Below, piece after piece: positions 32,201 to 48,122 of a stretch of 64,000 nucleotides of DNA. The DNA lies in NCBI GenBank assembly GCA_029532415.1, contig JAQOTA010000052.1, positions 620,001 through 684,000 of the forward strand, given 5' to 3'. The notes under the pieces were generated by a model, which ran no database searches, was not told where the DNA came from, and saw only the letters and a program-made list of their open reading frames with translations. A program made the position numbers and the translations under genes. Within the stretch, counting starts at the first letter, position 1. The number at the start of each line of letters is the position of its first letter. This DNA comes from Marasmius tenuissimus (Eukaryota > Basidiomycota > Agaricomycetes > Agaricales > Marasmiaceae).

Positions 32201-34421
32201 TTACCATTTGATCCACTCTCCGTACATATTAGGTCTTTCACCGCGAATATAGGACTCGAAAGTCCTTTTCAAAGCCGCCGACCAGTCGAGGTCTCGGAGG
32301 TCCACGAATTCCTCAGCCATGTTACGAGCTTTTCGCTCATTTTCCGCGAAGTGAGGTCCAAGGTCTGGCCAGTTGCGCGTAGCATCGAAGGGTATCCACC
32401 TAACGCCATGGATGAGGAGCGTGACTCGGGTGCAGAAATTACGGTGTCCTTACCAGAAATTGTGATAATGATATGCGAATGCGCCTTTGAAGAAACCATC
32501 GAAACCTAAGGCAAGCGGGCCAGCACTTTCAGACTCTGGTGTCTCGAAGAAGTGTTGGAAGCTATGATCAAGGAGGTTAGCGTAAAGAATATCAGCAACT
32601 AGACAAGCAACGGCACATACTCGGTCAGGAATGGCTGGGGTGGACGGTTCCGTTGGAAACCGTCGGTATTGAGCCATGCCGAATCGAATAGGGCATCTGG
32701 GACCGAATATAATAGCCCTGTAGACATTGCATCCTTGAGGTACCAAGTAATCGATATAGGATGAACGTCCAGCTCGTGTTTGAGAGCCGTTCGAAGTAGG
32801 AAAGTCCCCAATGCCGAGTTTTTGTTCATATGCAGAACAGCTGTGTTGTAACGCGACATACCCGACCACGAATACGCAAATGCGCCTTTCCATCCCCATA
32901 GTTCCTCCCAGTCCCTTAGAAACAGCATGTCCATGTCCAGGTATATACCACCGTAACGTTGGCAAAGGATAAACCGTACCAAGTCCGAAAGTACGACCGA
33001 CAGTTTATCGTATGAATCTGCCGATGCCGGGTCATCGTTCGTGCCCTCTGCCTTTTCATGGACCTCCTTGCCGTTAGACTCGAATACCGACGTGAGGGCC
33101 CTCCACTCGTCTTTGATTTCTGGGATGCTATCGAGTTGTTCCGCCGTGTCCCAGACCTTGAATTTGATAACGTTTTCGAATCGTGGATCGAGAAACGGAG
33201 CAACCCAAGGACTGTCCTTGATGGACTTCATCATGGCTTCAGCAGCGTCTGCACTGTGCATCTTGGAGGCAGAACCTGGATTAATCCAAAGCCACAGTTG
33301 TGGACGGCACGCTGCTTTGTCTTTTGGGTAGACATCGACGTGTAGGCCGGTGTTCTGAGTGTAGAGGAAAGACAAAATTGCCATGTATGGTTTGTCGGTG
33401 AAGGGACCCGTCCAGAACATGTGGAAAATCCGAGGGTAGTCGGGGTCGCATGGGCTTTCAAGTTGGGAATAGGTGCGGTACGGCATGGGTGAGGGTAATG
33501 AAACGGGAGGGACCTCTTTGACTGGACTTCTCGAGTCGTGTGGTGCTGAAGCGTTTCCCGATGTTTCGACCGCGTCGCTGATATCGTGCTCGTCAGTGTT
33601 GGACCTGGTATGTATCGGTTCCGCTTCGAGGTAGACGTGCTTCCAGTCATCCATGCTTACCCTCCGCAATTCACCTGGATTCAACCCCGCACCATCGCGA
33701 AGCACCTCTAAGCAGTCGCGAACATACTAGAAGAAAGAGATTCAGTTCACTGCTGACGCGACGCCAGAGCTAGACCTTGGACACACCTTGTCAGAGTAAA
33801 AATCACAATGTTGAAAAACTATATCCAGATCCATGATACTCCCAGGGATAGGACGCGGTGGGTAAGGTCCCTTGCGCTTTATGTCCAAGTATACACGTTT
33901 GGAACCGACACCATTCGTTATGGTAATAGCACCATTTGATGAGGGTTTTTCTGTCTTGCCAGAATGTTTTCTAGGAGGCAATCCAGGATTGTCTACAAGT
34001 TTTGATAGTCCGATCTCTTCCGGAACTACAAGGAGTTTAGACAATAGAAAAGGATTCAAGATACACGCCAACGCTCACTTGGTTTCCGAGATGGATAGTG
34101 TCCACTAGCAATCTCCCAGTACCATATCCTCTGTAAATCTTCCTTCTCAAACACCAACGTCTGTTTATGGCTCAAAATAGCTGGCGTTAACTTGTTCAAC
34201 GAAGCCGCGAGGTTCCCCGGTTGTGTGAGATGGGTGGTAAGGAGGATGACGAAGGCGAGGCCAAAACACACGAAGAGACTACCTCTCCTGCGAGTAAAAC
34301 GCGACAGCGTTATGTGGAATAGAGTGCGCATAGCATTGATGAACCATCTGAACACTCTGAAAAGGAAAGGCGAAGACGGTGCAGAATTACGCCAGGTGGG
34401 ATGATCCCTGTGCGAGGACAT
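32201..34421 (-). CDS. GT32-like glycosyltransferase (DXD sugar-binding), type II membrane protein
   Basis: Short basic cytosolic N-terminus, a signal anchor (LFVCFGLAFVILLTTHL, about residues 45-62), a stem region, then the catalytic domain: YPRIFHMFWTGPFTDKPYMA, LHVDVYPKD, LSDLVRFILCQRYGGIYLDM followed by DML (the DXD motif D-M-D), FAYSWSGMSRYNTAVLHMNK and a C-terminal FAYHYHNFWW block. The YGGIYLDMD signature is that of the glycosyltransferase DXD family (GT32, Och1/Sur1-like). Golgi location and mannosyl- or galactosyl-type activity are inferred; the acceptor is unknown. The last exon (IPFDATRNWPDLGPHFAENE to MYGEWIKW) is joined across an intron ending at 32401. Several introns in the stem. 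Confidence 0.8.
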
Positions 34422-37516: not shown

Positions 37517-39832
37517 TTACATTACTCTCAAAGACCAACTTCCTAGAGACGGAGCTGAGCCATCCTGGGGGATTGGGGGCAACCAACCAGTATCCAGGTT
37601 TCCAGGGTGCTGACCGTTCATATCCATAGGGAACACATGGTCACAAGCGATTGTTCGACCTGAATGGTACCCAACGCCATCAGAACCTCGAATGAATAGC
37701 AGCGGGAGGCTACGGCCGCTAATAGAAGGCGGCGGTCCTGACCCATTTCGGCTTGCGGGGTTAGAGCCGTCGGTAGGAGAATGGTTCTCCGACCGGTCTG
37801 TTGGTGGGGGGAGGGCATCGTCCTCAAGAGCCTTGATTACATCTGTGAGGGGTGGCATATCGACGATGACGATCGTATGCAAAGGGCCTGCCACTTGGGG
37901 AACGAATGGTGCAGCCCTTGGAGAGGAGGGAGAGGTGGGTGAATCTGACGGACCAGACGTAGGCTCTGGTAGGCCAGCCGGCGCCTGGACGAACGGGGAA
38001 ATGTTCGTGAGAGGACCAGGAGGCGAAGCTCCAAAAACTCGGTGGGCCAAGGGTCCGAGGTTGCCAAGATAGACGTCAAGTGGAAGTTGCTGCCTTGTCT
38101 TCGCATCCTCGTAGAAAAAGTTGGATACAGTTAACTCGACGGTATTGGTATTCGGCCTATAAACTGGTGCCGTGAACAACGTAGGGAACGGCGTTATGGG
38201 TTGCTCGGGTATACTGTTGTTCTTCCCAGACGAATCGAAGAACGTGTACTGGAATTTGGCTACATTGCAACGCGGTCAACGTGTGTTGAGCAAGTTAAAT
38301 GCTAAAAGCCAACTCACAAATACCAACGATCGTCCAGCAGAGGTAGTCATCCACTTCATCGAGGATTTGTCGAATGCCGTCTTTCATCTCGTCCCTTACG
38401 CGTGGGGACTGGAAGAGAAGTGGATGCGTGCCTGCTTGAGTCGACATCCCGGGTGCGGGGGGTGCTACAACGCCGGTACTTCCAGGAATAGGACCAGCCG
38501 CTGACAGATAGTGTCGTGAGCCGTCGGGATTGACGCGTTGCAGTGCAATCTTCTGCATCTGGCTGACAGGACCACCATCCTCTGCTGAAACTCGGCCCTT
38601 ATCAACTTTGCGGATAACGAGAGGTGCTGTTGCTATGCCTGTCTGAGTGTCTGACAAGACAATTTCACAGCCGTAAGTGACGGGTTGAGGTCCTGAAAAA
38701 GAAAATAGTGTGAGAGTTGAAAACGCGAAAAGTTCCCATCACATGACGAGGACGCACCAATATTCGGCACTTCGTGTGGGCGGCGAACGACATTGACATT
38801 GAAAGCTGACCATGCAACGTTACTGGCACACAACTGGGCGTGGTCAATAGTCATGTATTTCGTCCGTACGGTCTGAGAATTGATGCGATTAAATAGAGAT
38901 ACGGGCCCACCGGCCAAGATACACGAGGAAATATTGCGCGTTTTGGCGGTCTTTTTGGATGGTTTTGAGATGATTGTGACTGGAGCGGAGTCGAAGGTCG
39001 CCCAGATGCGACCAGGGGGGCCATCGCCGTCCGAACCGTGAGATGAAGGGTGCGGTTCAGCAATGTCGAGTGAGAGCTGGAAGCTCTTAGCCTTTGCAGC
39101 TCCGGTAACGTGTAAGAACTTGAAGCTCGCAGTCATAGAGTTGTCGAGGGGTGCCTTTTGTTCGAAGGAACGTTCGCCACTTTCTGCAACGACAGACATC
39201 GACAACTGTTGGTTTCTCATGTGCCAGACGGGTCCTTCGATGTGGACGACCGGCGGAGGACAGAGAAAGCGCTTTTCACTGCCGTATGACTTTTGGGCTA
39301 CAGCGGCGTGTAAGCAAATGACGGTAGTCATGGGCACGACGCGAGAGGGATCATGGGTGATATGGTCGCGTACGACGCGGCGAACTTTGTTGTGAGAGTC
39401 ATCTGAGCTTTCCGGTTCATCATGCTTGCGTTTTGACGACTAGCGTGTGGTTCAGATAAAGATTCAACGTGCCCCACGAGCGCGAATAGAGACGTACAGA
39501 GGCAGGACCTGACACTCCTGATGGGTTCTCTGAATGCAATGGAACGTTCGAATCTTGTTGCCAGGGAGGCTGTCCGTTTGGTTGCACCTCTTTCTGTGAA
39601 GCCGCTAGTATCGACTGGAGAGAAGCAGCGGGTGCGGGGGTTGAGGGACTTGACGAGGAAGAATGGGGAGGATTGGGGTTATTTGGGACCTATACGAGCA
39701 AGATTGAAGAGACAAAACAAACGCAGAGGGGAAATAACGAACATATATTGCATTCGGGGAGGTAGGACGAGAACTGGGATCCTGGGTGGCAGAGGACATG
39801 ACAGAGTTGAGGAAAAGAGAGAGATCGCTCAT
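37517..39832 (-). CDS. Fungal CSL (CBF1/Su(H)/LAG-1) family transcription factor
   Basis: DNA-binding protein of the family that mediates Notch signalling in animals; fungi lack Notch, and the S. pombe members Cbf11/Cbf12 act in cell adhesion, division and lipid metabolism. ATG at 39832, a Ser/Pro-rich N-terminus, then the RHR-N core with VICLHAAVAQKSYGSEKRFL followed by CPPP, the signature DNA-contact loop. The beta-trefoil part has MTIDHAQLCASNVAWSAFNV and GCEIVLSDTQTGIATAPLVI followed by RKVDKGR. The C-terminal RHR-C/Ig-like part is NNSIPEQPITPFPTLFTAPV to VTYGCEIV-related strands, with a long Pro/Ser insertion near 37800-38000 and an end at PSLGSWSLRVM. The short N-terminus suggests the Cbf11-like class. 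Confidence 0.85.
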
Positions 39833-42236: not shown

Positions 42237-44286
42237 ATGCGAATCGAACCGATCGCTGTTTCGAACCAAGAAATTCAGGAAAGTATAATTGAAGACCTCC
42301 CCTGGTATAGAGATCACTCGAACAACCTGTTTCTCCTGAAAAAACGCGTCGCCGTCAGTGTAAACCTTTAAACTACGCCGTTGGGGACTTGGTGCTGATT
42401 TTGGAAACCTCCTATAGTTGAACTCATCTAAAGAAAATACGTTCCGGACTATCGCAGTTTTTCCTTGGACTGAAGATTCAATACATGATTTCTTGAACGA
42501 TCGAACGACTTCTCGAGATCCTAGCGTTTGGAAACAAATCGTGAACAATTACTCTGGCGTTGTGGCGGTGGGCAGCGACTCCCCAGCAGAGGCCAGTCAA
42601 GATGACAGAGAAGATCATGTTTACATCTTCTTCCTCCGCTCCTCCAGACGGCCCATAAAAATCTCACTACCAAAGCAGGAGCGATCAGACGAGGTCCTCC
42701 CGACTGACAGAGTTAATGTAGCTTGGGTTCTAAACCCAGATCATTCATTCAAGCCATACCTGGTCATCTCAAGTAGATACTTGATCTACGTCTATAACAT
42801 TGAGCAAGACACTATGATTTCCACTCTCCGGGGCCATGGAGGTGTATGTAGACTGTTTATTGCTCGATTTCCAACAACTCACTGGATAACCCACAAATCT
42901 AAACTTTACAGCACATTACCTCGATAGCAGTACACCCTAGGCTGCCCCACATCTTCGCCACGACCTCACGCGACCTCTCTGTCCGTATCTACGACTTGAC
43001 GCAAACACCGAAAGAGGCGCCGAATAATCCAGTCTGGCCACCCCAGGGGAAGAAGCCTAGTCGTGCGGGTCCAGCGCACGGACTCGATATTACTGGCTCC
43101 GAAGGGTTCGGTCTAGGTAGATGTATTATGGTGCTTGTGGGCGGTATGTCGGGAGGTCATCAGGGTGACGTTTTCGCAGCGGTGAGTATTGAATGCCATT
43201 GTTCCATTTGTGACTACTATCGGCACTTGCCCACTGAAACCAACCCATACGTCTATCTCAGGCATTTCACAGAGACTATCCGATCATTGCTACGTGTGGA
43301 GTGAGTTATAGTAGAACCCTCCTTTGACGTTTGGTCCTCACTAATAAATTTGCGACCTGGCTGACCATAGATGGACCGCGCTGTGAAAATCTGGCACATA
43401 CCCTTCCCGAGTTTTTACACGGGCACGGACCAGAAGCTCGTTCGGGAGGACAAACCACTTTTCAGCAGCACTTGTATACACATGGCCCGGGTATTGTCGA
43501 TAAATTGGTATCTCTATGTCCCTTTACCCCGCAGCAGGGTTGTCCTGACACTTTGATCCCTCGTAGGATCGCCGACGATGTCCTTCTGAGCCACAATGCA
43601 CCTCCGATCATGGCGATTCCCCTCGAAGACGAAGACGAGTTGGAGATTGACCCCGGACGCATCGTGTTGTGGCAATGGCTTGGAAGAAGACGGTTTTTCC
43701 CGGATGGACTCTGGGATGAGGGGGATGTCCGTCAGACTGTACTACGAGGATGTGCATCGGTGAGCCTTGAACTCCGTCAACTTGCTTAGGCTCTTTGTTG
43801 ACCGAGATGCTGTCATCATTTACAGGACTATCAAGAATCGGGTGAGCCTTGTGATGAACTCCATGTATTCTTCTCCGTTGACCTTATCGTTCAGCGTCTT
43901 ACAAAATAATATCCTCAATCCCGTTACCTCCTTCACCCACCCAATATGACACTCCGCCAGGGTTCCAAGTATACAACGAGAGGGACTACCATGATCCCAT
44001 CGTCCTTTATACACATCCAGATCCAAAGGAAGATGGAATTACAATCATCAATGTCGCAGACTTCCCTCCACGGAAGCCCCCGCCATGTCGTTGGGCCGAC
44101 GATGAACTTGCGGAAGCGACGGGTAACCTGCAGATCTCAGAAGCCGAGCCCGAGCCTCCAAGATGGGATTTACGTCCCAAGGGTGGGGATGGAAAGGTCC
44201 AGGCCTGCGCTTTGTTGCCAGGTGGACACGCATTAGTGGCTGCTGGCGGTAGTAATTTGTGGCTATGGACGGTACCATTGACTTGA
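42237..44286 (+). CDS. EED: WD40 protein similar to EED/ESC (PRC2 subunit)
   Basis: ATG at 42237 (MRIEPIAVSNQEIQES); exon 1 ends at 42353 and exon 2 starts at 42418. Blocks align with EED in order: VNVAWVLNPDHSFKPYLVIS, YLIYVYNIEQDTMISTLRGH followed by GGHITSIAVHPRLPHIFATT and SRDLSVRIYDL, then GGHQGDVFAAAFHRDYPIIA with TCGMDRAVKIWHIP (compare EED HRDEVLSADY...SCGMDHSLKLWRI), FSSTCIHMARVLSINWL, GRIVLWQWLG and a last blade ALLPGGHALVAAGGSNLWLW. EED binds H3K27me3 and stimulates the EZH2-type methyltransferase. Assignment rests on my recollection of EED motifs; a generic WD40 protein is the alternative. Confidence 0.6.
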
Positions 44287-44585
44287 CGAGCTGTTGAGTA
44301 CTACGATATCAATCGTACTCCCTCTGACGTGACATTTTGACGATCATCTGTCTCTCCCAAACCAAATGAACATTATGCAACCAGTGCACGACATGTAACT
44401 ATACAAGGAATGTCTGTACAGTAAAGAGTCGAACGCAAACCGCCTCATGCCGCTGGGGCAATAATCCTTTCAGCTGGGACGCTGATGCACGTGGGTATCA
44501 TGAACTCCTACTCGACATCTAGAACTTAGAAAGGCGTCAGGAAGCCCAAGGACTAGCGCCAAATAAGGCACTCACCAAACTTCGC

Positions 44586-45409
44586 TCAGTAACGTGTGAT
44601 CTGGTTACCGTCCGACTTGGTGGCGACCTCGGCAGGGATGATCTCTTCCTGACGCTTCTTGTAAGGAACGATCTTGGAGCCGTCCGACTTGGTGGCAACC
44701 TCTGCAGGAATGATGTCGTCCTGACGCCTGTAGAGCTTGATGCCATCCTTATCGGCCTTTGTGGCTTTCTGAACGGGCATCTCGTTGACCTGACGCTTGT
44801 AGGGAACGATCTTAGAGCCGTCCGACTTGGTAGCCACCTCGGCAGGAATAATATCATCCTGGCGCTTCTTGTAAGGAACAATCTTGGAGCCGTCGGACTT
44901 GGTGGCGACTTCTGCAGGAATAATGTCGTCCTGACGCTTCTTGTAGGGAACGATCTTAGACCCATCGGACTTGGTGGCTTTCTGGACAGGCATCTCATTG
45001 ACCTGGCGCTTGTAAGGAACGATCTTGGAGCCATCCGACTTGGTAGCAACCTCGGCGGGAATAATATCGTCCTGGCGCTTCTTGTAGGGAACGATCTTAG
45101 AGCCGTCGGACTTGGTGGCGACCTCTGCAGGAATAATGTCGTCCTGACGCCTGTAAAGCTTGATACCATCCTTGTCGGCCTTAGTGGCCTTCTGGACAGG
45201 CATTTCGTTGACCTGACGTTTCACGTAGGCCGGGATAGTGTCTAGAGGTGCCAGCTGGCGACGCATTATCTGCATCTGCAGTGAACTGGGTGAGCGGGGG
45301 CCTCGCGACAGGCAAAAATAGAGCGCACCGGCATTGGCAGAGGCGAAGCGAGTACTTGGCCAGTGAGAAGTACTACCACAATAGCGAAGAATGTCGTGCG
45401 AGAGAACAT
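44586..45409 (-). CDS. Secreted Kex2-processed repeat protein (peptide precursor)
   Basis: Two exons (45329-45409, 44586-45275) encode 256 residues. Exon 1 encodes a signal peptide (FFAIVVVLLTGQVLA core, cut before SPLPMP). Exon 2 starts MQIMRR, then a short unit QLAPLDTIPAYVKR and nine repeats. Type A begins QVNEMPVQKATK and type B QDDIIPAEVATKSDG; they end in IKLY or IVPY before RR, KKR or KR. Every unit begins with Gln right after a dibasic site. The last unit has no basic site and ends in ...QITRY at the stop codon. The layout is that of fungal KEP precursors: ER entry, Kex2 cleavage after KR, carboxypeptidase trimming of K/R, release of about 21-residue peptides. No cysteines, no CaaX box, so not a lipopeptide mating pheromone. 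Receptor, activity and any further modification are unknown. Confidence 0.88.
44589..45215 (-). repeat. Nine in-frame tandem repeats of 63-72 bp coding Kex2-bounded peptides
   Basis: The 627 nt encode exactly nine units of 23, 24, 23, 24, 24, 23, 23, 24 and 21 residues in the order A B B, A' B B, A B B'. The array is thus a threefold (ABB) higher-order repeat of about 210 bp. Unit A' has an A-type start (QVNEMPV) and a B-type end (SDGSKIVPY). Copies differ at synonymous sites while the peptide is kept. Confidence 0.9.
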
Positions 45410-45801: not shown

Positions 45802-48122
45802 ATGTCGGACCCTCGATTTTCAAGACTCAAGACCGATCCTCGTTTCCGTCGTCCAAAAAAGCACCAGGCAAAGGTTGTCGTCGATGAACGCTTCAAATCC
45901 GTCTTCGACTCTCAGAAATCCAAAGGGAAGAAGAAAGCTGCGTCGGGTGAGTCCCACGTCATGATACATACGAGGAACCTGTACACAAAAGTATTGATCT
46001 AAATTTTTACAATAGCGCGCGTAGACAAATATGGCCGTGCACTGGCGGAAAATCACGAAGAGGACAACTTGAAACGTTTCTATCGCCTTGAAAACGACAA
46101 GAATGAGGAAGAGGACATCCCGAGTGTTCCTGACTATGCCCGTGGAGGAGTACTCATGGAATCCTCCGATGAAGAGGAAAACGAGGTGGACGAAAAGGGA
46201 GATAGTGATGAAGAAGGTTTTGTCACTGTCGGTCAAGATGCATCTCGTCCGATTCACGTTGGGGAAGTCAGCGATGAAGAAGCTGAGATAGATTTGGACG
46301 ACAATGACGATTTCGCCGACCTCGATGCCCAAGCAGCTGCCTACTCCAAGACGCACCCCCAACCAGAAGCTTCTGTCGACTCTGCCGAACGGACTAATCG
46401 TCTAGCGATTGTCAATCTCGATTGGGAACACGTTCGAGCTGCTCATCTATTCAAGATATGCTCCTCATTGGTATCACCCACTGCTCCGGCTGTGGCGCCC
46501 TCGAGATCAAAACCTGGCGTCGGCAAAAAGCCTACCAAGGGGACCACAGTCGCTCGTGGTCGAGTTCTCAATGTCAAGGTCTATCCTAGTGAGTTTGGCA
46601 AGAAACGAATGGCTAGGGAAGAGAAGGAAGGTCCACCTCCAGAGCTTTTCCGGAGGAAAGGACACGCGGATGACGAGGAAGTGAACGAACGGAACATTTA
46701 CGAGGTTGGGGGTGGGGACGATTTCGACGAAGACGCGTTGAGGAAGTACCAATTGGAACGACTAAGGCAAGTACTGGGTTCTATCTTATTAGCAACTAGC
46801 CTGACGATCGCACTTTATAGATACTACTACGCTATCGTGACTTGTGATACGGTCGATGCAGCTTCGCACATATACAACGAGCTCGAGGGAACAGAACTCG
46901 AACGTTCTGCGAATATGTTTGACCTCAGCTTTGTGCCGAACGGTATGAGCTTCGACGACGAGCCAAGGTTTGGATTTCTGTTTGTTTTGGAAAAACGATC
47001 GTGAGGACTTACACTTGAACAGAGACGAAGCCACGGAAGATATCGAAACAGGATACAAGGCCGTCGAGTTTGTCACAGACGTAGGGACTCTCTCAAACTA
47101 TTGGCACTCATAGCGAATGCTAACGCGCTCCGTATCCAGGCCCTACGGCACTCTAAAGTCAAATTAACCTGGGACGAAGATGATCCAGAGCGTAACAAAG
47201 TCACTCGCCGCAACATAACCAAGAAAGAGATTGACGATGCCGACTTCCAAGCATACATTGCATCCGCCTCCTCTGAATCGGAAGACGAAGATGCAGACAC
47301 GGGGAACCGAAAGGGCCTTGCGCGTGACAAGCTTCGTTCGTTACTTCTAGGTGGTAATGACGAGCTTCCCGAAGGCTGGGATAAAGGAAACGAGCGCGCC
47401 GACGATATCGACATGGAGGTTACCTTTACTCCTGGTCTTGGGGACGTGAAGGATGAGGAGGAGACGACCCTCGAGAAGTACCAGCGAAAGATGAGGGAGA
47501 AGCGGAAAAAGAGGAAAGAAGGTGCGAAGGAGAAGGCTGAAACACAGCCAGAGGATGACTTCTTCGATGCTGCGAGCGACGGTGATCAGGTCAAGCGTCC
47601 CACGAGAACTAAAGGAAAGTCAAGCCCGGAGCCCAGTGACGTGGAGGATCTATCGGCCGTTGTGCCGCCTGGAAACGACGCTACGGAGCCCCAGCATTTC
47701 AACCTCAAGTCGATCATGAAGGCCGAGCGCAAGATAAAAAACAAGAAGAGGAGAAAAGGCAAAAAAACGACTGAGGAAGACAATGAGATGCAGGAAGACT
47801 TCGCGATCGATGTCAAGGATGACCGATTCAAGGCGATACACGACGATCATAACTTCGCTATTGATCCCAGTCATCCACAGTGAGTTCTTTTGTGTTTATC
47901 ATTTGCGAACGGTGCTTACACCCAGACAGGTTCAAGAAGACCAAAGCTATGGAGTCGCTACTCAACGAACGTTCTCACCGTAAAACGTCGAATGACAAGC
48001 CAAAAGCGACGAGTTCACAAAGTGACAGTCAATCGGACCTCAAAAATCTCGCCGAACGTGTCAAAAGGAAGGGCGGTGCCGCACTCCAGTCGGGAAAAGG
48101 AAAGCGTCAACGCCTGCAATGA
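45802..48122 (+). CDS. ESF1: Pre-rRNA-processing protein ESF1
   Basis: Nucleolar factor for 18S rRNA maturation. ATG at 45802: MSDPRFSRLKTDPRFRRPKK with QAKVVVDERFKSVF, VDKYGRALAENHEEDNLKRF and YRLENDKNEEE. An acidic stretch is followed by TNRLAIVNLDWEHVRAAHLF, VLNVKVYPSEFGKKRMAREE, YQLERLRYYYAIVTCDTVDA, ASHIYNELEGTELERSANMF, ALRHSKVKLTWDEDDPERNK, ASASSESEDED and the NUC153 motif DDRFKAIHDDHNFAIDPSHP with QFKKTKAMESLL. Lys-rich C-terminus. Five or so introns. The order is complete for ESF1. Confidence 0.93.

What the first reader, a model, noticed from the sequence alone, without database searches (positions are those of the whole stretch)
44586..45409. Secreted precursor with nine Kex2-bounded peptides, probably an undescribed peptide family
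Seen: a signal peptide, then nine near-identical 21-24 residue units separated by RR, KR or KKR, with no cysteine and no CaaX box. Known: fungal KEP proteins (Kex2-processed repeat proteins) are released in this way, as in the yeast alpha-factor precursor, Ustilago Rep1 and dikaritin RiPP precursors. Inference: the gene makes several secreted peptides with signalling, surface or defence roles. I do not recognise the peptide sequence from any described precursor. No UstY-type (DUF3328) oxidase gene is visible within the window, so a cyclised RiPP is less likely than linear peptides.
Basis: partly seen in the sequence, partly recalled or inferred. Interest (0 to 1): 0.88.

Follow-up and report, generated by a model that had tools for sequence, protein, structure and literature searches.

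The report
Conserved mushroom peptide precursor gene
This fungal gene encodes a predicted secreted protein made of nine short peptide repeats that would be cut apart by the Kex2 protease; its main peptide matches one already detected by mass spectrometry in the mushroom Coprinopsis cinerea, so the gene is a new and informative member of a known family whose function is still unknown.

Summary
On the minus strand (45409 to 44586, one 53-nt intron inferred) lies a 256-residue precursor: signal peptide, one leader peptide, and nine units bounded by RR, KR or KKR, without cysteine or CaaX box. The units are two peptide types: A (QDDIIPAEVATKSDGSKIVPY, five identical copies plus a C-terminal variant) and B (QVNEMPVQKATKADKDGIKLY, two copies), plus one B/A chimera. 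Identical copies differ only at third codon positions (13 of 13 variable columns in A, 8 of 8 in B), so the peptide sequence is under strong purifying selection. The claim 'undescribed family' fails: the A core is 10 of 17 identical to the peptide of C. cinerea KEP 497993 (pyro-QIPAELPTKSINGNIEPY), which Vogt et al. 2022 detected by MS and knocked out without visible phenotype. One sequence search and two profile searches gave 39 relatives, the named ones in four Agaricomycete orders and in Sordariales (Ascomycota). One copy was found in this genome, which also has kexin-like and glutaminyl-cyclase-like genes; the only UstYa stretches on the contig lie about 518 kb away. Likeliest reading: linear pyroglutamyl peptides, probably extracellular signals. 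Release and function remain untested.

The parts
45329..45409 (-). Exon 1: start codon, signal peptide MFSRTTFFAIVVVLLTGQVLA (45347-45409) and SPLPMP
   Evidence: the cut after ...VLA is by eye (recalled -3/-1 rule), no predictor was run
45276..45328 (-). Intron, 53 nt, GTGCGC...CTGCAG (alternative acceptor 6 nt further, 59 nt)
   Evidence: join supported by Marasmius fiardii P0014; no RNA evidence
44586..45275 (-). Exon 2: MQIMRR, leader peptide, nine repeat units, stop codon
45216..45257 (-). Single leader peptide QLAPLDTIPAYV-KR between the RR site and the repeats; conserved in about half of the relatives
   Evidence: 18 of 40 by a pattern written after viewing; 20 of 35 testable relatives beat 99% of shuffles
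45147..45215 (-). Unit 1, B-type: QVNEMPVQKATKADKDGIKLYRR
45075..45146 (-). Unit 2, A-type: QDDIIPAEVATKSDGSKIVPYKKR
45006..45074 (-). Unit 3, A-type: QDDIIPAEVATKSDGSKIVPYKR
44934..45005 (-). Unit 4, B/A chimera: QVNEMPVQKATK + SDGSKIVPYKKR
   Evidence: first 36 nt: 32 of 36 identical to each B unit, 22-23 to A units; nt 37-66: 25-28 of 30 to A units 2, 3, 5, 6, 8, 15-17 to B units, 15 to the variant unit 9
44862..44933 (-). Unit 5, A-type: QDDIIPAEVATKSDGSKIVPYKKR
44793..44861 (-). Unit 6, A-type: QDDIIPAEVATKSDGSKIVPYKR
44724..44792 (-). Unit 7, B-type: QVNEMPVQKATKADKDGIKLYRR
44652..44723 (-). Unit 8, A-type: QDDIIPAEVATKSDGSKIVPYKKR
44589..44651 (-). Unit 9, C-terminal A variant ending in Tyr before the stop: QEEIIPAEVATKSDGNQITRY

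Best explanation
The gene encodes a precursor of the Coprinopsis cinerea KEP 497993 peptide family that is predicted to enter the secretory pathway and to be cut by Kex2 after RR and KR into about ten linear peptides. Inferred steps: signal peptidase removes about residues 1-21; Kex2 cuts after each dibasic site; a Kex1-type carboxypeptidase trims the basic tails back to Tyr, which is where the last unit already ends; the N-terminal Gln becomes pyroglutamate. Predicted products: pGlu-DDIIPAEVATKSDGSKIVPY (five copies), pGlu-VNEMPVQKATKADKDGIKLY (two), the chimera (one), pGlu-EEIIPAEVATKSDGNQITRY (one) and the leader pGlu-LAPLDTIPAYV (one). The likeliest role, clearly less certain than the processing (about 0.4), is an extracellular ligand acting between hyphae or in developing tissue, with an unknown receptor.
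For: Architecture. Purifying selection on each peptide type: over ten pairs, five identical A units show 68 synonymous and 0 non-synonymous differences (pS 0.45, pN 0); at least 14 changes, all synonymous, chance 1e-9 to 2e-8 under a simple mutation model. Family link: A core 10 of 17 identical to the published C. cinerea core, 0 of 100000 shuffles reach this; a profile from units of P0001-P0010 only (found with the window protein alone) scores the C. cinerea core 37.6 against a shuffle maximum of 15.9. Named relatives in four Agaricomycete orders and in Sordariales. In C. cinerea the products are pyro-QIPAELPTKSINGNIEPY and the same +K, absent from the knockout; a third product of that precursor, pyro-QVPVDEPA, was in the culture supernatant. 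Own genome: kexin-like ORF (best PDB hit Kexin 2id4, E 2.8e-35), glutaminyl-cyclase-like ORF (PDB E 2.5e-16), Peptidase_S10 stretches (Kex1 not told apart from other members). The calculated products carry net charge -2 to +1 and are hydrophilic except the leader. AlphaFold2 of exon 2 gives no fold (mean pLDDT 47.9, pTM 0.17), weak because only 17 rows were used.
Against: No transcript, peptide or cleavage evidence for this gene. In C. cinerea the knockout had no visible phenotype, synthetic KEP peptides had no antibacterial activity, and the IPAEL peptides were found mainly in premature caps and not in culture supernatant, which argues against a freely diffusing signal in culture. The paper reports that the 497993 peptides persisted in its kex knockouts, the kex2a/c double mutant included (for the cap peptides its figure legend names only the kex2a knockout as testable), so the protease is not fixed. 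B units match the C. cinerea core only 5 of 17 (119 of 100000 shuffles reach that). 12 of 141 family units lack a dibasic site or chain end, and 2 of 40 proteins show no recognisable unit. The intron donor GTGCGC is unusual.
Confidence: 0.82

Rival explanations
1. The released peptides act on other organisms (bacteria, animals, competing fungi or a plant host) rather than as signals of the fungus itself.
For: Vogt et al. suggest a role in biotic interactions because C. cinerea kep knockouts looked normal in axenic culture. Another Kex2-site repeat precursor, Laccaria MiSSP8, is reported to matter for mycorrhiza formation (passage in PMC7329392).
Against: No antibacterial activity of synthetic C. 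cinerea KEP peptides against the five strains tested there. The main A peptide is acidic (net -2) and hydrophilic (GRAVY -0.33), unlike typical cationic antimicrobial peptides (recalled). Conservation of the core over distant orders is unlike an arms-race effector (inference).
Confidence: 0.3
2. The products are structural: they coat hyphae or assemble on surfaces, as reported for the Ustilago Rep1 peptides.
For: Same precursor layout; many copies per precursor suggest that quantity matters (inference). Rep1 peptides are described as amyloid-like fibrils and water-repellents.
Against: The A, B, chimera and C-terminal peptides are hydrophilic (GRAVY -0.33 to -0.88); strict conservation of sequence and of the Tyr end is more than a coat would need (inference).
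Confidence: 0.12
3. Cyclised RiPP (dikaritin type) with UstYa-type oxidases acting on Tyr.
For: Every unit holds a Tyr at its predicted end; the genome holds 26 PF11807 stretches.
Against: None lies in the window; the only two on the same contig end about 518 kb before the window. The C. cinerea relatives were detected as linear peptides.
Confidence: 0.04
4. The protein stays whole as a repeat protein of the cell surface; the dibasic pairs are incidental.
For: No processing data exist for this species.
Against: 106 of 141 family units are followed by a dibasic pair and 23 end the chain; 78 of the 126 units with an upstream dibasic pair within about 10 residues start with Gln; C. cinerea products were observed; no fold is predicted (weak).
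Confidence: 0.04

Closest known systems
Coprinopsis cinerea KEP 497993 and its agaricomycete homologues (Vogt et al. 2022, PMC9769878; abstract, parts 1-3 of 9, discussion and found passages seen; figures and supplements not)
   Same: Core IPAExxTKSxxGxIxPY, N-terminal Gln (pyroglutamate when detected), Tyr or Tyr-Lys end, Kex2 sites; at least 13 homologues reported there
   Different: The window precursor carries a second peptide type (B) and a chimera, a DD insertion between Gln and the core, KKR sites and a three-unit higher-order array; the full 497993 protein was not retrieved, so the comparison rests on the published peptides
KEP type G-1/P-2 (#7) of Umemura 2020 (PMC7329392; section 6 and found passages seen)
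   Same: Near single copy (64 KEPs in 62 strains, 49 genera), none with DUF3328 genes within 15 genes, Tyr-rich repeats, two phyla; genera include Coprinopsis, Hypsizygus, Pleurotus, Panaeolus, Termitomyces and Moniliophthora
   Different: Identity of the type with this family is inference: its profile is in a figure and a supplement that could not be read. Of the 11 genera named among the relatives here only Termitomyces is on its list; Lentinula, which Vogt et al. also name, is not
Ascomycete alpha-pheromone precursors
   Same: Signal peptide, tandem peptides between Kex2 sites
   Different: No XA/XP (STE13) spacers after the Kex2 sites; contig C5 holds none of the STE3 stretches found
Ustilago maydis Rep1
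   Same: Kex2-cleaved tandem repeats
   Different: Hydrophilic units here; no sequence comparison was made

Membership tests
KEP (Kex2-processed repeat protein) | N-terminal signal peptide | tested here: met
   MFSRTTFFAIVVVLLTGQVLA by inspection; no predictor run
KEP (Kex2-processed repeat protein) | Tandem peptide repeats between dibasic sites | tested here: met
   Nine units, eight ending in RR/KR/KKR and the last at the stop
KEP (Kex2-processed repeat protein) | Released as peptides in the organism | not testable with these tools
   Needs peptidomics
C. cinerea KEP 497993 family | Shared peptide core | tested here: met
   A core 10 of 17 identical, 0 of 100000 shuffles; profile from P0001-P0010 scores 37.6 against shuffle maximum 15.9. 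B core only 5 of 17 (119 of 100000 shuffles)
C. cinerea KEP 497993 family | Whole-precursor homology | not tested
   497993 itself was not retrieved; a Termitomyces relative (P0019) carries QIPAEVPTKSINGKIEPYDKR
C. cinerea KEP 497993 family | Pyroglutamyl N-terminus | not testable with these tools
   Gln starts all nine units and the leader; a glutaminyl-cyclase-like ORF is in the genome
Umemura type G-1/P-2 | HMM profile of the repeats | not testable with these tools
Dikaritin RiPP | DUF3328/UstYa gene near the precursor | tested here: not met
   26 PF11807 stretches in the genome, none in the window
Alpha-type pheromone precursor | XA/XP STE13 spacer after the Kex2 site | tested here: not met
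   Units begin QDDII, QEEII or QVNEM
Alpha-type pheromone precursor | STE2-type receptor in the genome | tested here: inconclusive
   0 PF02116 matches, but the control genomes gave none either
Basidiomycete lipopeptide pheromone | C-terminal CaaX box | tested here: not met
   Ends ...QITRY, no Cys

The most novel reading that the evidence does not exclude
The locus is one member of an ancient peptide-hormone family of fungi, spanning Sebacinales to Agaricales and reaching Sordariales, in which one precursor delivers a fixed set of different ligands (A, B and a conserved leader peptide) to an as yet unknown receptor. The separate codon-level freezing of A and B in this gene would mean that each peptide has its own target.
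Probability: 0.3. Interest if true: 0.75.

Novelty: new member of a known kind. Interest (0 to 1): 0.36.

Why it matters
[quoted passage not shown] This gene adds three things to a family with MS-proven products: evidence from a single genome that the peptide sequence itself is under strong selection, a second co-encoded peptide type under the same constraint, and a leader peptide shared with about half of the relatives. Together with relatives in Sebacinales, Russulales, Polyporales and two Sordariales it makes a general, not lineage-specific role testable, and it says which peptides (A, B, leader) to synthesise.

Tried and rejected
Rejected: undescribed family; dikaritin; mating pheromone by linkage (STE3 stretches lie on contigs C37, C10, C30 and C11, none on C5). 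Led nowhere: Pfam scan of the precursor (only DUF5022 at 16.6 bits, below its cut-off of 25); promoter scan, which uses a bacterial consensus and says nothing here; a look for TATAWA or CCAAT boxes in the 400 bp upstream, none; paper searches on Serendipita secreted repeats (listing only), on later KEP papers (listings only) and on assembly figures to name the species (listing only); AlphaFold2 model, too poor for a fold search. Le Marquer et al. 2019 (PMC6339444; passages and section 10 seen) name conserved motifs in the text there, none like this core; its tables and figures were not seen. STE2 absence is not shown. A second gene copy was not found with three protein queries (two weak matches on C10 and C41 at E 0.24 and 1.3 were not followed); the tool scores only its best candidates and reads no introns. 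Not searched: the C. cinerea proteome, synteny in other fungi, any transcriptome. Two kexin-like places were found (only one of them compared with PDB), against three kex2 genes in C. cinerea; counts in that tool are lower bounds. Of eight further M28 places looked at as ORFs only the C21 one was compared with PDB.

Full report
What is there. The minus-strand gene runs from ATG at 45409 to the stop at 44586-44588. Signal peptide and repeats lie in different frames; a 53-nt GT-AG intron at 45276-45328 joins them into 256 residues. The Marasmius fiardii protein P0014 reads SPLPMPMRMMRRQLAPLDTIPAYVKRQ at this place, the window SPLPMPMQIMRRQLAPLDTIPAYVKRQ, which supports this intron and acceptor. 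There is no RNA evidence and the donor GTGCGC is unusual. The neighbours are ESF1 exons (46003-47883, PF25121 and NUC153), divergently transcribed, and an ORF pair ending at 44286 without a Pfam match.

The repeats. Nine units (coordinates) fall into two types. A: QDDIIPAEVATKSDGSKIVPY, identical in units 2, 3, 5, 6 and 8, with a variant as the last unit 9. B: QVNEMPVQKATKADKDGIKLY in units 1 and 7. Unit 4 is a chimera, B in its first 36 nt (32 of 36 to each B unit, 22-23 to A units) and A in nt 37-66 (25-28 of 30 to units 2, 3, 5, 6, 8; 15-17 to B; 15 to the variant unit 9). I read the array as three blocks of B-A-A; TRF finds a 213-bp period, 2.9 copies, 84% matches. The A and B cores share 7 of 17 residues.

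Selection. Summed over the ten pairs of the five identical A units there are 68 synonymous differences in 150 synonymous sites and none in 510 non-synonymous sites. All 13 variable columns in A and all 8 in B (units 1 and 7) are third codon positions. At least 14 changes are needed for A; if each had the chance of being synonymous of a random change (0.227, or 0.280 with transitions weighted four-fold), all being synonymous has a chance of 1e-9 to 2e-8 (a simple model). Gene conversion alone would also erase the synonymous differences, so selection on the peptide is the better explanation (inference). The terminal unit 9 is an exception, with 8 non-synonymous differences to each of the five.

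Relatives. A search with the window protein gave 10 proteins at E <= 1e-3, a profile of these 15 at E <= 0.01, a second profile, which included a row built from the published C. cinerea peptide, 33 at E <= 0.1; 39 distinct proteins in all. Each search scored only the roughly 8000 candidates sharing most words, so the list is not complete. Fourteen carry an organism name: Serendipita vermifera (Sebacinales), Mycena alexandri, Marasmius fiardii, Amanita thiersii, Termitomyces sp., Lentinula raphanica, Lentinula lateritia, Agrocybe chaxingu, Hermanssonia centrifuga (Polyporales), Russula decolorans, Lactarius indigo, Lactarius vividus, and from Ascomycota (Sordariales) Rhypophila decipiens and a Naviculisporaceae species (names; five lineages looked up, the other orders recalled). 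A pattern written after viewing finds 141 units in 38 of 40 proteins, window included (none in P0037 and P0038); 96 are followed by KR, RR or KK within 3 residues, 10 by KR or RR further on within 12, 23 end the chain, 12 do neither. Of the 126 with an upstream dibasic pair within about 10 residues, 78 begin with Gln.

Link to a described family. Vogt et al. 2022 (PMC9769878; abstract, parts 1-3 of 9, discussion and found passages seen) detected pyro-QIPAELPTKSINGNIEPY and the same +K from C. cinerea KEP 497993, lost in the knockout, and report at least 13 homologues. The A core matches 10 of 17 residues ungapped; 0 of 100000 shuffles reach that. A profile from 27 distinct units of P0001-P0010 only, that is before the published peptide entered any query, scores it 37.6 against a shuffle maximum of 15.9. 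B matches 5 of 17 (119 of 100000 shuffles). The main text of that paper does not contain the words Serendipita, Marasmi-, Russula, Sebacinales, Ascomycota or leader; its figures and supplements were not seen, so I cannot say that the wider spread or the leader is unreported.

A second possible match is the most widespread KEP type of Umemura 2020, G-1/P-2: 64 KEPs, 62 strains, 49 genera, two phyla, none beside DUF3328 genes (PMC7329392 section 6). Copy number, lack of DUF3328, Tyr-rich repeats and the presence of Coprinopsis, Hypsizygus, Pleurotus and Panaeolus fit. Against it, the profile itself could not be read, Lentinula is missing, and of the 11 genera named among my relatives only Termitomyces is on the list. 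I hold this as plausible, not shown.

Leader. Between signal peptide and repeats lies QLAPLDTIPAYV-KR. In the 35 of 39 relatives with a long enough region, 19 have at least 6 of 11 identities to PLDTIPAYVKR and 20 beat 99% of shuffles; the Serendipita protein (P0005) does not, nor does the Russula one (P0025). The leader was part of the queries that found the relatives, so these counts lean upward. It resembles the C-terminal part of a unit (I-x-x-Y-x-KR; my reading).

Machinery. The genome (71.06 Mb, 70 contigs) has two P-domain places on C21, one of which was compared with PDB and matches Kexin 2id4 at E 2.8e-35, a glutaminyl-cyclase-like ORF on C21 (E 2.5e-16), 42 Peptidase_S10 stretches among which Kex1 was not picked out, and one found copy of this precursor. 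PF11807 gives 26 stretches, none in the window; the two on C5 end at 102114, about 518 kb before the window start. STE3 stretches are on C37, C10, C30 and C11. STE2 gave nothing, but neither did its controls.

Reading. Shown: anatomy, two peptide types, codon-level constraint, family relation of the A peptide. Inferred: secretion, Kex2/Kex1 cutting, pyroglutamate, Tyr as the mature end. Least certain: function. A conserved, apparently single-copy, selection-frozen peptide without modification genes nearby speaks for a ligand; against it stand the lack of phenotype in the C. cinerea knockout, and detection of the IPAEL peptides mainly in young caps and not in culture supernatant, although pyro-QVPVDEPA from the same precursor was in the supernatant. 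A role in fruiting tissue or toward other organisms remains open.

Verdict. New here are the second co-encoded peptide, the chimera, the strength of the constraint and, as far as I could read, the taxonomic reach.

Noticed in passing
G000:C21:47655-47960, 69429-69596 and about 184000-184700: Two kexin P-domain places and the glutaminyl-cyclase-like gene lie within about 140 kb on one contig.
   Followed up: partly
P0017 and P0035 (Sordariales): Two ascomycete relatives carry three units each that end in PF instead of PY, followed after one residue by RR or KR; either an old family or transfer between phyla.
   Followed up: no
G000:C37:445554-558046: Cluster of STE3-type receptor stretches, probably a pheromone-receptor mating locus.
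   Followed up: no
G000:C36:147402-150523, C36:510870-512355, C27:2133155-2134408, C30:1480779-1483776, C11:771084-782738, C5:101351-102114, among others: Paired or clustered UstYa (PF11807) stretches, possible cyclic-peptide loci in the same genome.
   Followed up: no
window 38633-39439 (-): LAG1/CSL DNA-binding domain, PF09271, E 2.9e-27.
   Followed up: no
window 32599-33726 (-): Glycosyltransferase with DXD motif, PF04488, E 2.9e-7.
   Followed up: no
window 44523-45245 (+) and 44537-45220 (-): Long open frames in other frames over the repeat array (240 and 227 aa); probably by-products of the repeat, since third-position variation marks the 44586 frame as coding.
   Followed up: yes
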